A stretch of 34,438 nucleotides of DNA. Source: an uncultured Pseudomonadota bacterium (lineage in GTDB: Bacteria > Pseudomonadota > Gammaproteobacteria > Competibacterales > Competibacteraceae). The notes beneath the pieces were generated by a model. The model ran no database searches and had not been told where the DNA came from. It saw nothing but the letters and a program-made list of their open reading frames with translations. A program made the position numbers and the translations under genes. The DNA is taken from the NCBI GenBank assembly GCA_903844665.1, contig CAIMUS010000156.1, positions 1 through 34,438 on the forward strand, read 5' to 3'. Of the stretch, positions 4,753 to 34,438 are shown one piece after another. Position 1 is the stretch's first letter. Each line of letters begins with the position of its first letter.

Positions 4753-4918
4753 ATGCCGACTATGACTAGCGAGCCGTTGGTGTTGTCGCCGCCGGCGGAT
4801 TTCCAGACCCGCTTTCCCGACGTGGTCCGCCTGGCGCAGCACCTGTCGCTGCGATACGTCCATCATTACGTCGTCAGCGAGCAGGAGTTGCACCGTCGGC
4901 GGCGCTCTGTGGCGCACC
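4753..4918 (+). pseudogene. Frame-shifted 5' part of the CHAT protein gene
   Basis: An ATG at 4753 has an AAGGA ribosome-binding site 8 bases upstream and opens a reading frame in a different phase from the main CHAT reading frame. About 45 sensible residues (MPTMTSEPLVLSPPADFQTR onward, through SLRYVHHYVVSEQELH) pass into low-complexity Arg-rich translation near 4893. In the +1 frame the sequence continues with VGGALWRTVADAARLDAA, which fits a CHAT-protein N-terminus. One extra base near 4893-4896 (CACCGTC) would explain it. It is either a real mutation or an assembly error. Confidence 0.6.
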
Positions 4919-7582
4919 GTGGCGGACGCCGCCAGGCTGGACGCCGCCAGGCCTGCGGCTGGCACGGCCTTACTGCCGCTGGTGATCGAGAGTGCCGATC
5001 CGCTGGTGCAGTCGCTGCCCTGGGAATGCCTGCATCATCCGCAATACGGCTTTCTCGGTCAACACCGCGGCTTCACGCTGAGCCGCCGGCTGGCGGCGGC
5101 TGACACGCCGCCGCAAACGCTGCCGGCCGGTCCGCTGCAAGTGCTGCTGTTCACGTCCATGCCCGACGATCTGGACGCGGAGAAGGAACGGCTGGATGTG
5201 GAGAGCGAACAGGCCAGGGTGCTGGGGGCGCTGGACCCGCTGATTCAGGATGGACGGGTGCAACTCACCACCCCCGATGACGGCCGCTTTACCCATTTCC
5301 AGGCGCTGCTGCGGCAACAGTCGTTCCACCTGGTGTTTCTCAGCGGCCACGGTGAGTTCCGCGAGGACCCGCTGCGCCGTGAACCGCCCAAGGCGGTATT
5401 CATCTTCGAGGGTGAGGACGGCCACGCCGAGCCGGTCGAGGGTGGGCGCCTGGCGCAGGCGTTCATGGGGAGTGCGGTGCAGGCGGTGGTGCTGTCCGCC
5501 TGCCAGTCCGGCAAGTCGTCCTCGGACGCCCTCGGCGCCAGTCTGGCGGTGCAACTGCTGAACAGTGGCTTGCCGCATGTGGTGGGGATGCGTGAGTCCA
5601 TTCTGGATCTGGCCGGCATCCGCTTCGCCCAAGCCTTGTGTACCGCGCTGGGTCGCCAGGAGCGGTTGGATGTGGCGTTGCAGGAGGCGCGCGCGGCGAT
5701 TGCCCAACCGCTGGACCTGGCCGGTGCTCAGCGGGATGCGGCCAAGGCCGGGCAGGCGGAATTGACTTGGGGGCAATGGTGCCTGCCGTTGCTGTACAGC
5801 CGGGACCCGGCGCGACCGTTGATCGACTGGGCGTTCCAGCCGGCGCCGCCGAAACCGCCGTTGTTGCGTTATGAGGAACTGGCCGGTATGCCGTTGCCGC
5901 AGACCTTCATCGGCCGGCGGCGGGCGTTGCGGGAACTGGGCCGGGAGTTGCACGGCGGCGGGGCACGCCAGTGGCTGATCACCGCTGCCGGCGGTCAGGG
6001 CAAGACCAGTCTGGCGGGGCGGATTGCCCAGCGGCTGGAAAGCGACGGCTATCTGGTGCGGGCATATACGGCGCGGCAGGAACAGCCCTGGCAGGGGTTT
6101 GTCGCCGACTTGACGATGGCGCTGGAACCGGCGTTGCGGGAGCAGGTGGACCGGCAACTGGGCCGACTCCCGCCCCTGAATCAGGCCAAGCTGCTGGTGC
6201 GGGCGTTGCTGCAACAGACGCAGAACAAGCTGGTGCTGGTGCTGGACAATCTGGAGAGTGTGCAGGACCCGGCGACCAATCGAATGACCGATGACGCTAT
6301 CGCCGTCTGGCTGGCGGCCTGTCAGCCGGTCGCCGGGAGTCCGGCGCCCATCCTGCTGCTGACTTCCCGCTGGGTTATCCCCGGTTGGGAGGGCCCCAGC
6401 CGCGGACACTATCCGTTGCCGCCGCCGAGCTATGGCGATTTTCTGCGCTATCACCAGCATCTGGCTGGCGCCCGCTGGGAGTTGGAACGGTTGCGCCGTT
6501 TGTACAAGGCGCTGGCCGGCAATTTCAAAGGGTTGGAATTGTTCCACGGTTTGAGCCAGGTGGCAGCGGATGAGGATGCCTTTCTCCAGCAACTGGAACA
6601 GGCTCAAACGGGGCTGCAACTGTATATGGCGGTGGCCAAGCTGTTCGGCTATCTGCAACCGCCGGAACAGGAACTGCTCAATCGGCTGCGCGCCTATCAG
6701 GCGCCGGTCATTGTCGATGGGGTGCGGTTAATTGCCAGGGAGTTGGAGAAACCGGAAGATTTATTGCGGCGGTTGACCGGATTATCGCTGGTGGATGTGG
6801 AGTGGGAGCCGGAGTTGGGGATGAATCGCTATCGGCTGTCCCCGGTGATAGCGGATTGGCTGGCGGAGCAGCGGGAAGCACCGGCACTGGCGCTACGCCA
6901 GAAAGCGGCCCGCTATCAGCACTGGGTGTTCGAGCATCTGCGGTCCAACCTGGATCAGATGCTGATCGCTCATGAGGCGCTGCGGCAAGCCGAACTTGAC
7001 GAGGAGGCAGCCCGGTTGGCGCTGGATGAGGTTGTGCTTCGCTTTGACCTGTGGGGTCTGTATCACACTTTGCTCGAGGAATGGCTGCCGGCGTTGCGAG
7101 AGAGCCAGGATCAGGCGATGAAGGGATTGGCGTTTAACCGGTCCGGCAAGATTTGCGGCGCTGTCGGCGAATATGCTGACGCCATGAAATATCTGGAGGA
7201 GGCGCTGGCGATCTGTCGGGCGATTGGCAACCGTGCGGGAGAAGGGGCGACGCTCAAGAATATCGCGGTGATTTATGATGCCCAAAGCGACTACGCGCGA
7301 GCGTTGCGGTATCTGGAGGAGTCGCTGACGATCTGCCGGGTGCTGGGCGACCAGGCGGGTTTATGTGGGACATTGTTTAATATGGGATGTATACACTTTA
7401 TGAAGCAGGAACTCGATCAAGCCATTGCTGCCTTTGTAGCGGCTTACCGGATTGCCAGGGATATTGGTTATGCGCAAGTTCTCAGCGCATTGGATAAGCT
7501 GGCGAAGGAAATGGGTGGCACTGGTCTGGAATACTGGGAAGCGCTGGCACAGCAACGGCCATCCGAAGAAGCCGGCGGATGA
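4919..7582 (+). CDS. CHAT-domain protease fused to STAND-type NTPase and TPR repeats
   Basis: An 887-residue open frame beginning at an internal GTG; the natural start is probably the ATG at 4753, behind a one-base frameshift. The N-terminal CHAT (caspase-like) peptidase domain shows the catalytic His near 144 (LVFLSGHGEF) and Cys near 195 (VVLSACQSG). A STAND/NB-ARC-like NTPase follows: a FIGRRRALREL entry motif, a P-loop GGQGKTSL with Lys near 362, a Walker B LVLVLDNLE with Asp near 443, and a sensor-like ILLLTSRW. A helical middle region leads to at least three TPR units (about 735-855) of the type YADAMKYLEEALAICRAIGN. This is the plan of NLR-like bacterial sensors: TPRs sense, the NTPase oligomerises and the CHAT protease cuts a target. 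Antiphage or programmed-death function is inferred from architecture only. No obvious substrate gene is adjacent. Confidence 0.88.
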   Translation: MADAARLDAARPAAGTALLPLVIESADPLVQSLPWECLHHPQYGFLGQHRGFTLSRRLAAADTPPQTLPAGPLQVLLFTSMPDDLDAEKERLDVESEQARVLGALDPLIQDGRVQLTTPDDGRFTHFQALLRQQSFHLVFLSGHGEFREDPLRREPPKAVFIFEGEDGHAEPVEGGRLAQAFMGSAVQAVVLSACQSGKSSSDALGASLAVQLLNSGLPHVVGMRESILDLAGIRFAQALCTALGRQERLDVALQEARAAIAQPLDLAGAQRDAAKAGQAELTWGQWCLPLLYSRDPARPLIDWAFQPAPPKPPLLRYEELAGMPLPQTFIGRRRALRELGRELHGGGARQWLITAAGGQGKTSLAGRIAQRLESDGYLVRAYTARQEQPWQGFVADLTMALEPALREQVDRQLGRLPPLNQAKLLVRALLQQTQNKLVLVLDNLESVQDPATNRMTDDAIAVWLAACQPVAGSPAPILLLTSRWVIPGWEGPSRGHYPLPPPSYGDFLRYHQHLAGARWELERLRRLYKALAGNFKGLELFHGLSQVAADEDAFLQQLEQAQTGLQLYMAVAKLFGYLQPPEQELLNRLRAYQAPVIVDGVRLIARELEKPEDLLRRLTGLSLVDVEWEPELGMNRYRLSPVIADWLAEQREAPALALRQKAARYQHWVFEHLRSNLDQMLIAHEALRQAELDEEAARLALDEVVLRFDLWGLYHTLLEEWLPALRESQDQAMKGLAFNRSGKICGAVGEYADAMKYLEEALAICRAIGNRAGEGATLKNIAVIYDAQSDYARALRYLEESLTICRVLGDQAGLCGTLFNMGCIHFMKQELDQAIAAFVAAYRIARDIGYAQVLSALDKLAKEMGGTGLEYWEALAQQRPSEEAGG

Positions 7583-31484: not shown

Positions 31485-32927
31485 TTATTGGAGAAAAAGT
31501 TCTTTGGTGCTTGTACCACCACATTGACCATCACTTACTGTAGCAGTAACAACTCCCGACGCAACCTGACCGACCGAGATAACCCGTTGCCATGTGGCGG
31601 TCGCAGTATTGCCCGAAATTGAGCCGTTACTTGCCGACCAGCTAAAAGTCAAGGGATTATTGTCGGCATCGGAAGCAGAGATAGTAATAGTTGTGGTAGC
31701 GCCAATTAGTCGCCCCAGATCATCATAGCTATAATTGGTACTGGATTGAGTGGTATCAGAGATCACTGGAGGAGAATTTTCTGTCCCAATAGGACAATCC
31801 TCTTCCAATGCCGACCACGTCATTCTAAAGTTCTGATCGACTGCGCCATCACCATTGGCGTCTACCGCCAGATTGACGTGAACACCATCACTCTCGGCTG
31901 TTACCTTGACGCTGGAACTATTAGCCCCGGTAATAGTCATATTGCCGCTGGATGCATAGTCATTCTCGCCAATAGTCTTGAATGGCTCTGAAGTTTTGAC
32001 GCCTACGGAGCCGCCTAAAGCAGTGCTGTCCATTTTATCAGCGTCGAAGGCGTCGCTAATACTGTCCTCATCGTCACGCTCAATGTATGTAGCGACATAA
32101 TTGGACAGGGTGGTAATAGCATCATCAGCTTCTTTTCCTACCAGGGAGCCGCCTTTCATCGTATCCTCGTAATAGGGCGGTTGTGCTTTACTGACTAGAG
32201 TCAAGTCACCATCCAAGGTAGTTGAGTTATCCTCCTCCTTGACTGTAAAACTGCTGAAGGTATATTGGATCTCGCGATTAGCATCGCTAAGCGCTACAGC
32301 CTGCAACGTCACCTTTCCGCTTAAAATCCCCAACCACCATCTAAATTCACAATTCTGGAATTCGTAAGTGGCGCTCTCACCCTGGGACAGGTAACTATCG
32401 CCATTAGTATCGCTGAGATTCAAGTTTACCGTGCCGCCCTCGTTAGAACACGTAGGAGCCGCGGCAAGCGCTCTTACAGTCGGAGCCGGAGTCATTGACG
32501 CTAGTGAGCGTTTGATATGAGCCGGTGTTTTCTTGAGAGATTTCGAAGCAATCGCGGCATTGCTTGAGCTTCCCTCGGACGGTAACAGATCATCTCTCAA
32601 GTCTGTTATAACATCCCAAAGATCGTACTGCAGATAATCATAAGTATCAAGAGCTTTATTGCTCACTTTGGCAGCATTGTCTGTGGTGATTGGCAGTGTG
32701 AATTGATTGACGTTGCCACCTCCTCCGCCACCTCCATCTCCACCTCCTCCGCCACCTCCATTGTCATTCCCACCTCCATTACCGCCACCGCCACCTCCAT
32801 CTCCACCTCCGCCGCCACCGCCATTGTCATTCCCACCCCCATTACCACCACCTCCACCGCCACAACCGCTCAATGCCAATACAAGAGCAGTTCCGCCGAT
32901 TAATATCGGAAACAACTTCTTTTTCAT
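31485..32927 (-). CDS. Glycine-rich lipoprotein with C-terminal Ig/PKD-like domain
   Basis: A 480-residue exported lipoprotein. The signal peptide with lipobox (ALSGC) has its lipidated Cys near residue 22. It is followed by a Gly/Asn/Asp-rich low-complexity segment (about 23-72) made of a repeated 21-residue unit (NGGGNDNGGGGGGGDGGGGGG). The rest is a beta-rich domain (about 75-380) with two Cys, probably surface-exposed, and a C-terminal Ig-like PKD-type domain: ITISASDADNNPLTFSWSAS, then SGNTATATWQ. No function is assigned. The next gene, a LuxR-type regulator, diverges from it across about 200 bases. Confidence 0.82.
   Translation of the reverse strand: MKKKLFPILIGGTALVLALSGCGGGGGGNGGGNDNGGGGGGGDGGGGGGNGGGNDNGGGGGGGDGGGGGGGNVNQFTLPITTDNAAKVSNKALDTYDYLQYDLWDVITDLRDDLLPSEGSSSNAAIASKSLKKTPAHIKRSLASMTPAPTVRALAAAPTCSNEGGTVNLNLSDTNGDSYLSQGESATYEFQNCEFRWWLGILSGKVTLQAVALSDANREIQYTFSSFTVKEEDNSTTLDGDLTLVSKAQPPYYEDTMKGGSLVGKEADDAITTLSNYVATYIERDDEDSISDAFDADKMDSTALGGSVGVKTSEPFKTIGENDYASSGNMTITGANSSSVKVTAESDGVHVNLAVDANGDGAVDQNFRMTWSALEEDCPIGTENSPPVISDTTQSSTNYSYDDLGRLIGATTTITISASDADNNPLTFSWSASNGSISGNTATATWQRVISVGQVASGVVTATVSDGQCGGTSTKELFLQ
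32760..32862. repeat. 63-bp tandem repeat in the lipoprotein gene
   Basis: The unit that starts ATTGTCATTCCCACCTCCAT on the plus strand recurs 63 bases later with few changes (about 1.6 copies). It encodes 21 Gly/Asn/Asp-rich residues, so gain or loss of a unit keeps the frame. Confidence 0.75.
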
Positions 32928-33134
32928 GACTATCCCCTCGTTGCTATTCGATGAACTTTATTTCAGCTTATAGACGATGCGCTCCAGTTACGTCGCCAAG
33001 TCCATCGAGCACTTGACTTCGATTTGCACTGACTATAAGGTAAGACTCATAAGACATTTATATAGAAATTAGAGCAATCCCTACTTTAGTAGGGAACGCA
33101 GAGGGTCACCGGGTGGCAACGGAGAGAGAAAATC

Positions 33135-33773
33135 ATGACGAGATCAAGGCAGGAACAGGCGCTGTGCGCGCTGGTGGAGACGCTCTTTGCGGACAAGGTC
33201 AGCCCAGAGGAACAGTGGCCGGAGGTGTTCGAGGCGCTTAGGAAAATTCTCCATTTTTCTAGCGCGGTCTTTATGCCGATCGATCCGGTCAACTGGACGC
33301 TGCAACCGGGCTACACCTATGATTGCCCTAACCTTACGGTGGATTATCTGGCCCACTACCAGCGGCTGGACCCCTATGTCACCGAAGCTACTTGCCTGAA
33401 AAGCTTTAATACTCCCGCCAGGTTTTCCGATATAGCCGATATTGCACGAGTGAGTCAGGGCGAATTTGGCTCATTCCTGCGGCAGGTGCCTTACTTTCAT
33501 GCACTGGTGTCGGCGCCTTTGCTGCAAGGCTGTCCGCTCGGGGTGGTGAGCGTCCAACGGCGCCGCGAACAGCCTGACTTCGATGACCAGGAAATCCGGT
33601 TGTTCGGGTGGTTTGCACTGCAATTAGCGCGCGCCATCGATTATGCAAAGCTGCGAAGCCGGCCCGACAATCTGTCACCCTACGAAAATCGTTATAAGTT
33701 ATTAGAAATTTCAAGCACTTATCACCCCCCCCCCCCCCCACAGAAATCGTCGTTTCCGGCACGGGTCGCCTGA
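33135..33773 (+). CDS. LuxR-type regulator, N-terminal part (sensor domain), cut off by poly-C frameshift
   Basis: A 212-residue frame that starts MTRSRQEQALCALVETLFAD with a GGAGAGA site. It is a GAF/autoinducer-binding-like sensor: DPVNWTLQPGYTYDCPNLTV, AHYQRLDPYV, then GVVSVQRRREQPDFDDQEIR typical of LuxR-family sensor domains. The frame runs into a run of 15 C (33725-33739) and then into a short nonsense tail (QKSSFPARVA) before TGA. With one C more or two fewer, it would continue into the DNA-binding half starting at 33740, giving about 380 residues. Confidence 0.82.
   Translation: MTRSRQEQALCALVETLFADKVSPEEQWPEVFEALRKILHFSSAVFMPIDPVNWTLQPGYTYDCPNLTVDYLAHYQRLDPYVTEATCLKSFNTPARFSDIADIARVSQGEFGSFLRQVPYFHALVSAPLLQGCPLGVVSVQRRREQPDFDDQEIRLFGWFALQLARAIDYAKLRSRPDNLSPYENRYKLLEISSTYHPPPPPQKSSFPARVA
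33725..33739 (+). repeat. Run of 15 C within the regulator gene
   Basis: A mononucleotide tract that lies between the sensor and DNA-binding halves. Its length sets the reading frame: 13 or 16 C would join the halves. It encodes proline codons (CCC) and is a natural slippage site. Confidence 0.9.
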
Positions 33774-34279
33774 TCAATGTCAACGAAGCCGCTCAGTGGG
33801 TGCTGGCGGCGCTGCCAAAAGGTCAGATCTTTGCCCTGCCCGGTCCGAGCGGACCGGTACATATCTGGTATACGCCCGGCCAGGTCTATAGGGTTCACAG
33901 CCATGCCTGCCCGCCGGAGAGTCTGCTTTCGATGACCCGGTTGAGCGCTCTGCCGATGCTAATGCCGCGCTATCGCCTGCCGGCAATACTGAAGCTGCCG
34001 AAATTGGGCCAGCCATTCATTACCCTGATCGAACCCTTGCCCCAGGCTCCCACGTTACCGGCACGATTGGAGAGCCTGAAGCTGTCGCCACGCGAACTGG
34101 AAGTCATCACTCTGCGGCTGCAAGGTTTGCTGATCAAACAGATTGCCGGGCGCTGCGGTCTCCAGGAAACTACAGCCAAGGAGTATCTGGCAAACGTTTA
34201 CAAGAAAGCAGGCGTCCGTACAGGACGTGAGTTCATGGCGCTTATGCTCAGTAATGAGTTACAGCCACCGCTACGTTGA
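33740..34279 (+). CDS. LuxR-type regulator, C-terminal part (HTH domain)
   Basis: The frame resumes after the poly-C with TEIVVSGTGRLINVNEAAQW and ends with a LuxR-type helix-turn-helix: LKLSPRELEVITLRLQGLLI, then KQIAGRCGLQETTAKEYLAN and VYKKAGVRTGREFMALML. There is no own start codon with a good ribosome-binding site; the first GTG is at 33800 inside the domain. It is therefore the second half of the regulator, expressed only when the C-tract length is right, or a casualty of a sequencing error. Confidence 0.8.
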   Translation, partial: TEIVVSGTGRLINVNEAAQWVLAALPKGQIFALPGPSGPVHIWYTPGQVYRVHSHACPPESLLSMTRLSALPMLMPRYRLPAILKLPKLGQPFITLIEPLPQAPTLPARLESLKLSPRELEVITLRLQGLLIKQIAGRCGLQETTAKEYLANVYKKAGVRTGREFMALMLSNELQPPLR

Positions 34280-34304: not shown

Positions 34305-34438
34305 ATCGGGTCGGGGTAACGGGATTGCGCCCGTTACCCCTCCCACACCACCGGACATGCGGTCTTCCGCATCCGGCGGTTGAACCCAGCGGCTTCACGT
34401 TGCCGCAAGATCCGATGGAACGTATAAGCCCCAACGCC
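34305..34438 (-). other. 3' end of a group II intron (domains V and VI), incomplete at window end
   Basis: On the minus strand, the segment at 34348-34382 forms the domain V hairpin: CCGCCGGATGCGG, AAGA loop, CCGCAT, GT bulge, CCGG, TGG. A GTGGTGTGGGAGGGG linker follows, then a domain VI-like hairpin GGGGTAACGGG/CCCGTTACCCC (34313-34340) and an intron-like 3' end GACCCGAT (34305-34312). The rest of the intron, with any maturase, lies beyond the window. I see no part of its reverse transcriptase gene here. Confidence 0.6.

What the first reader, a model, noticed from the sequence alone, without database searches (positions are those of the whole stretch)
33135..34279. LuxR-type regulator split by a run of 15 C: candidate phase-variable switch
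Seen: the sensor half and HTH half are in different frames joined at a C15 tract; one C more or two fewer restores a single 380-residue regulator. Known: long mononucleotide tracts within genes are classical sites of slipped-strand phase variation. In the present state the DNA-binding part is off. The neighbouring lipoprotein gene diverges from it and could be a target. A homopolymer sequencing error is a real alternative.
Basis: partly seen in the sequence, partly recalled or inferred. Interest (0 to 1): 0.72.

Follow-up and report, generated by a model that had tools for sequence, protein, structure and literature searches.

The report
Poly-C on/off switch in regulator gene
In a wastewater-type bacterium, a gene for a DNA-binding regulator is cut into two reading frames by a run of 15 C's, a stretch that copies unstably, so single cells probably flip this regulator on and off; such switches are well known, mostly from disease-causing bacteria, and the length here still has to be checked in raw reads.

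Summary
C15 lies at 33725-33739, and codon statistics put the coding-frame change at that tract. Upstream is a GAF sensor half; downstream are a PAS-like segment and a GerE/LuxR DNA-binding domain. Intact single-frame relatives (about 20 aligned, 15-21% identical) have the same domain order. The tract replaces the short loop before the first PAS strand, where extra prolines should be tolerated. A Markov model expects about 0.001 C/G runs >=15 in this genome; two occur, the other intergenic. Lengths 13 and 16 give the 380/381-residue regulator; other classes truncate it before the DNA-binding domain. Best explanation: a hypermutable poly-C ON/OFF locus, as in bvgS and mga, assembled in an OFF state. 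I add a perfect 8-2-8 (7-2-7 type) palindrome 39 nt upstream of the start codon, a plausible operator for the regulator and the divergent lipoprotein. The regulator is missing from the other 39 genomes of the order, and the lipoprotein nearly so. Length variation could not be tested: one assembly, no reads, no second strain. A one-base assembly error or a fixed null allele remain live. Novelty: new member of a known kind, in Competibacteraceae. Interest is moderate.

The parts
33725..33739 (+). C15 homopolymer, proposed slippage site, in the loop between the GAF-linked helix and the first PAS-like strand
   Evidence: read directly; 0 of 100 shuffles reach C13; 0.0012 runs >=15 expected in the genome; position from alignment and model
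33135..33773 (+). 5' half of the regulator as read: 212 aa, GAF domain at residues 76-169, then five prolines and an out-of-frame tail
   Evidence: Pfam GAF; AlphaFold pLDDT 82 with GAF folds as best PDB hits; codon score
33740..34279 (+). 3' half of the regulator in another frame: PAS-like segment plus GerE/LuxR helix-turn-helix
   Evidence: GerE 4e-9; codon score; model
34082..34222 (+). GerE/LuxR-type DNA-binding helix-turn-helix, removed in the OFF states
   Evidence: Pfam match at residues 120-166 of P0002; pLDDT 87-98; StyR, EL222, GerE, NarL nearest folds
33121..33126 (+). GGAGAG, likely ribosome-binding site of the regulator gene
   Evidence: sequence; inference
33078..33095 (+). Perfect palindrome TCCCTACT-TT-AGTAGGGA, candidate operator, 39 nt upstream of the regulator ATG
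   Evidence: only perfect copy in the genome; arms >=8 in 47 of 2000 shuffles of this intergenic region
31485..32927 (-). Divergent lipoprotein gene (480 aa, lipobox LALSGC, Gly-rich repeat), possible target
   Evidence: no Pfam family; only a partial match elsewhere in the order

Best explanation
A hypermutable poly-C contingency locus inside a one-component GAF-PAS-HTH (GerE/LuxR-type) transcriptional regulator. Shown: a 15-C tract joins two coding halves that lie in different frames, at the interdomain loop. Inferred: polymerase slippage changes the tract by single C's at high frequency. One length class in three (13, 16, 19) gives the full regulator; the other two give GAF-only proteins of about 212 or 251 residues without the DNA-binding domain. 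Clonal cells therefore divide into regulator-ON and regulator-OFF. When ON, a dimer would bind the palindrome at 33078-33095 and control its own gene and the divergent lipoprotein (inferred, weakest step). The assembled state is OFF, if the length 15 is right.
For: Tract far beyond chance. Frame switch located at the tract, both halves keep coding statistics and have no second lesion. Intact single-frame relatives with the same domain order, whose genes have no homopolymer longer than 7. Tract at an unstructured loop before the PAS-like strand, where length change by whole prolines should be tolerated. No other frame break at a homopolymer >=7 in 377 kb, so the assembly is not generally poor at homopolymers. 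Precedents in regulators: bvgS C6/C7 (PMC1891110) and mga C8/C7/C6 (PMC10330708); homopolymers >=8 mostly vary within cultures of Neisseria (PMC5084427).
Against: No length variation has been observed: one assembly, no reads, no second strain, no ortholog with a tract. Assembled length may be off by one. Most other long C/G runs of the genome are intergenic or in dispersed repeats, so the class may be mutational rather than selected. MutS and MutL are present, which slows slippage. Operator role is prediction only.
Confidence: 0.6

Rival explanations
1. Homopolymer length error: the true genome has a length that keeps the frame, the regulator is made in all cells, and the split is an artefact of sequencing or assembly.
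For: A 15-base homopolymer is hard to size; the assembly is a 348-contig draft and the tract lies about 700 bp from a contig end. Both halves look intact and coding.
Against: No other frame break at a homopolymer >=7 in 377 kb. Even with an in-frame consensus, a tract this long is expected to slip in replication, so an error in this assembly does not by itself remove the switch.
Confidence: 0.2
2. Fixed null allele: a one-time frameshift in a tract-bearing gene, now drifting as a pseudogene in this lineage.
For: Gene absent from the other genomes of the order, so it may be dispensable or recently acquired. The assembled state lacks the DNA-binding domain in the main product.
Against: No second lesion; coding statistics of the downstream half are as good as those of the upstream half; HTH core is well formed. 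A tract of this length would revert often.
Confidence: 0.13
3. RNA-level recoding: RNA polymerase or ribosome slippage on the C run makes a fixed ratio of short and full-length regulator from one DNA state.
For: The tract is long enough for slippage and both frames are open over it.
Against: Transcriptional slippage is usually on A/T runs (PMC3711429). No stimulatory element was sought or seen, and no relative has a homologous tract.
Confidence: 0.05

Closest known systems
mga of Streptococcus pyogenes, polycytidine tract C8/C7/C6 (PMC10330708)
   Same: A C run inside a transcriptional regulator gene; single-C changes switch regulator function reversibly; more than one length is functional.
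   Different: mga tract is 8 C near the 3' end of an Mga-family gene in a pathogen, shown by experiment. Here 15 C between the sensor and DNA-binding parts of a GAF-PAS-HTH protein, sequence evidence only.
bvgS of Bordetella pertussis, C6/C7 tract (PMC1891110)
   Same: C run in the coding region of a regulatory gene; one extra C truncates the protein and turns a regulon off.
   Different: bvgS is a sensor kinase and the tract is short; here a one-component DNA-binding regulator and a much longer tract; regulon unknown.
GAF/PAS one-component LuxR-type (GerE HTH) regulators such as L056
   Same: Same domain order over the whole length in a single frame.
   Different: Relatives have no long homopolymer and no frame break; identity only about 15-25%.
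NarL 7-2-7 operators (PMC4549865)
   Same: The palindrome has inverted heptamers with a 2-bp spacer, the arrangement NarL output domains prefer as dimers.
   Different: Different heptamer sequence; binding by this regulator not tested.

Membership tests
SSR-mediated phase-variable (contingency) gene | Simple repeat longer than chance in or before a gene | tested here: met
   C15; 0.0012 runs >=15 expected genome-wide, 2 observed
SSR-mediated phase-variable (contingency) gene | Unit changes alternate between a full and a truncated product | tested here: met
   Products at 10-19 C computed
SSR-mediated phase-variable (contingency) gene | Length polymorphism between strains or within a population | not testable with these tools
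   No reads; no second strain found
SSR-mediated phase-variable (contingency) gene | High-frequency, reversible change of phenotype | not testable with these tools
   Needs culture or reporter work
LuxR/GerE-type HTH regulator | C-terminal GerE helix-turn-helix | tested here: met
   PF00196, 4.2e-9, above cut-off; model and fold hits
Quorum-sensing LuxR | N-terminal autoinducer-binding domain | tested here: not met
   Pfam finds GAF and no autoinducer-binding domain; best folds are GAF domains, TraR ranks lower
GAF-PAS-HTH one-component regulator | GAF, linker helix, PAS-like segment and HTH in one frame | tested here: inconclusive
   Domain order met in alignment and models, but not in one frame at the assembled length; PAS-like part modelled only in its first strands and helix

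The most novel reading that the evidence does not exclude
A bacterium not known as host-associated carries a small contingency system based on poly-C tracts: one switches a transcriptional regulator, and hence a regulon, and others sit in 5' regions or directly at ribosome-binding sites (G11-CAA-ATG, G10-CAG-ATG, C16 upstream of a MoxR-like ATPase gene). Reactor populations would then be mixtures of regulatory states.
Probability: 0.2. Interest if true: 0.62.

Novelty: new member of a known kind. Interest (0 to 1): 0.4.

Why it matters
Phase variation by simple repeats has been studied mainly in host-associated pathogens. A switch in a regulator, rather than in a surface gene, of a Competibacteraceae bacterium would mean that such populations hold heritable mixtures of regulatory states that average metagenome or transcript data miss. 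It can be checked directly in reads of reactor samples.

Tried and rejected
Second strains or close orthologs to compare tract length: none found in genome contigs, family, order and class genomes, plasmids or IMG/VR. Poly-C in relatives as supporting evidence: mostly rejected, since in G016 C240, G019, G022 and G060 the runs lie at contig ends, beside N joins or in scrambled G/C-only sequence; G026 (C13) and G021 (C12) look genuine. Mutator background as the cause of long tracts: rejected, MutS and MutL frames are intact. A regulon from further copies of the palindrome: rejected, the only other exact core lies in an intergenic dispersed repeat beside uvrC, and the reversed control pattern is commoner. 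General homopolymer error of the assembly: not seen. Quorum-sensing LuxR: rejected on the N-terminal domain. Gene picks were partly in a wrong frame; one search replaces them, though its row L117 is still doubtful and is not counted.

Full report
What is there. The window (contig C156 of a 4.88-Mb, 348-contig assembly, 98.9% complete) carries exactly 15 C at 33725-33739. An ATG at 33135, preceded by GGAGAG, opens a frame that runs through the tract and stops at 33773 (212 aa). Another frame is open from the tract to 34279. The first half matches GAF domains and the second the GerE/LuxR helix-turn-helix. A codon model trained on long ORFs of the same assembly scores only one frame positive on each side (0.14 and 0.15 per codon), and the change falls at the tract. 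So this is one gene in two frames, not two unrelated ORFs.

Is it more than chance? In 287 kb of the same assembly not chosen for tracts, C/G runs fall by a factor of about 4 to 5 per base up to length 8. A second-order Markov model then expects 2.7 runs >=10, 0.12 runs >=12 and 0.0012 runs >=15 in the genome; 16, 7 and 2 are present. No A/T run of 9 or more occurs in 377 kb. Long C/G runs are thus a class of their own here, as reported for Bordetella (C/G runs >8 in excess; PMC1891110). Of 40 genomes of the order, this one included, 27 have no C12 at all. Of the poly-C runs I read in relatives, most lie at contig ends or beside N joins and are probably artefacts; no tract of this genome has an N nearby.

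Where the tract sits in the protein. No ortholog was found in the other 39 genomes of the order. A full-length relative in the class (L056, 25% over residues 2-370) was used for a profile that found single-frame relatives of about 350-550 codons across the phylum. In the alignment of these relatives (one row, L117, is doubtful), the linker helix is followed by a short loop and the first PAS strand (pattern ALDxLxxGVxxVDxxGRIxxANxAA). The tract (HPPPPT when read through) takes the place of that loop, and the query has about 8 extra residues just before it. The longest homopolymer in the relatives' genes is 4-7 nt. AlphaFold models agree. The first half is a GAF fold (pLDDT 82; best PDB hits mostly GAF domains). 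In the second half the five prolines are unstructured, then strand-strand-helix as at a PAS start, and the HTH is at pLDDT 87-98 with StyR, EL222, GerE and NarL as nearest folds. The middle of the second half is modelled poorly (residues 59-105 below 50).

How it most likely works. Lengths 13, 16 and 19 give a 380-382-residue regulator; 12, 15 and 18 give a GAF-only protein of 211-213 residues; 11, 14 and 17 give 250-252 residues with an unrelated tail. The tract lies where adding or losing a proline should be harmless, so several ON lengths are possible, as in mga, where C8 and C6 are functional and C7 is not (PMC10330708). The step from sequence to mechanism, replication slippage at a useful rate, is inferred. 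In Neisseria, homopolymers of 8 or more are mostly variable within cultures (PMC5084427), so a true C15 that never varies would be surprising.

A possible target. Between the regulator and the divergent lipoprotein gene lies a perfect palindrome, TCCCTACT-TT-AGTAGGGA (33078-33095), the only perfect copy in the genome. An inverted repeat at least this good occurs in 47 of 2000 mononucleotide shuffles of this 207-bp region, so it is suggestive only. Its geometry, inverted heptamers with a 2-bp spacer, is the 7-2-7 arrangement that NarL output domains bind as dimers (PMC4549865). The lipoprotein has only a partial match to its C-terminal part in one other genome of the order, and the regulator has none. 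The two may form a lineage-specific pair; this is inference.

What speaks against, and what is open. One assembly, no reads, no second strain. An off-by-one length is quite possible for a 15-mer, although the assembly shows no other frame break at a homopolymer of 7 or more in 377 kb (a crude scan by codon score, read by eye). A fixed null allele is possible but less likely, because no second lesion has accumulated. MutS and MutL are intact, so the tracts do not reflect loss of mismatch repair. RNA-level slippage would be unusual on a C run.

Organism. The glutamate dehydrogenase of the window is 67% identical to that of a Candidatus Competibacteraceae MAG from a laboratory-scale reactor, its best match in named genomes. 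I take the window to be from Competibacteraceae; no other genome of its genus was among those searched. The wastewater habitat is inferred from that relative.

Verdict. Observation confirmed; interpretation well supported on anatomy and untested on variation. This is a new member of a known kind (poly-C phase-variable regulators), of moderate interest, and cheap to settle with reads.

Noticed in passing
L047 3053-3068 (G000:C28:14552-14567): C16, the longest run of the genome, lies upstream of a MoxR-like ATPase gene (about 90 nt before a possible ATG), where length change could alter a promoter.
   Followed up: partly
L042 2046-2056 (-) and L048 2046-2055 (-): G11 and G10 stand directly before possible start codons (G11-CAA-ATG of a signal-peptide protein; G10-CAG-ATG), in the ribosome-binding position.
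   Followed up: partly
L115 2016-2027 (G021:C3:117674): In another genus of the family, C12 lies in frame within a possible signal-peptide region (MKKPSCYPPPPFSIKNANYLGWLVLWLALLLSP), a candidate second phase-variable gene.
   Followed up: no
L054 973-983 (G000:C199): G11 shortly upstream of a possible secreted-protein gene.
   Followed up: no
window 34310-34381 (-): Likely group II intron end (Rfam RF00029, E 2.8e-5, below its gathering score), just after the regulator and at the contig end.
   Followed up: partly
window 32718-32862: 63-bp tandem repeat, 2.3 copies, coding for Gly/Asn/Asp stretches right after the lipobox of the divergent lipoprotein; it may vary in copy number in frame.
   Followed up: no
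window 4753-5103 and 4919-7582: An ORF overlaps the start of the 887-aa CHAT-like protein in another frame; the start of that protein may be misassigned or shifted.
   Followed up: no
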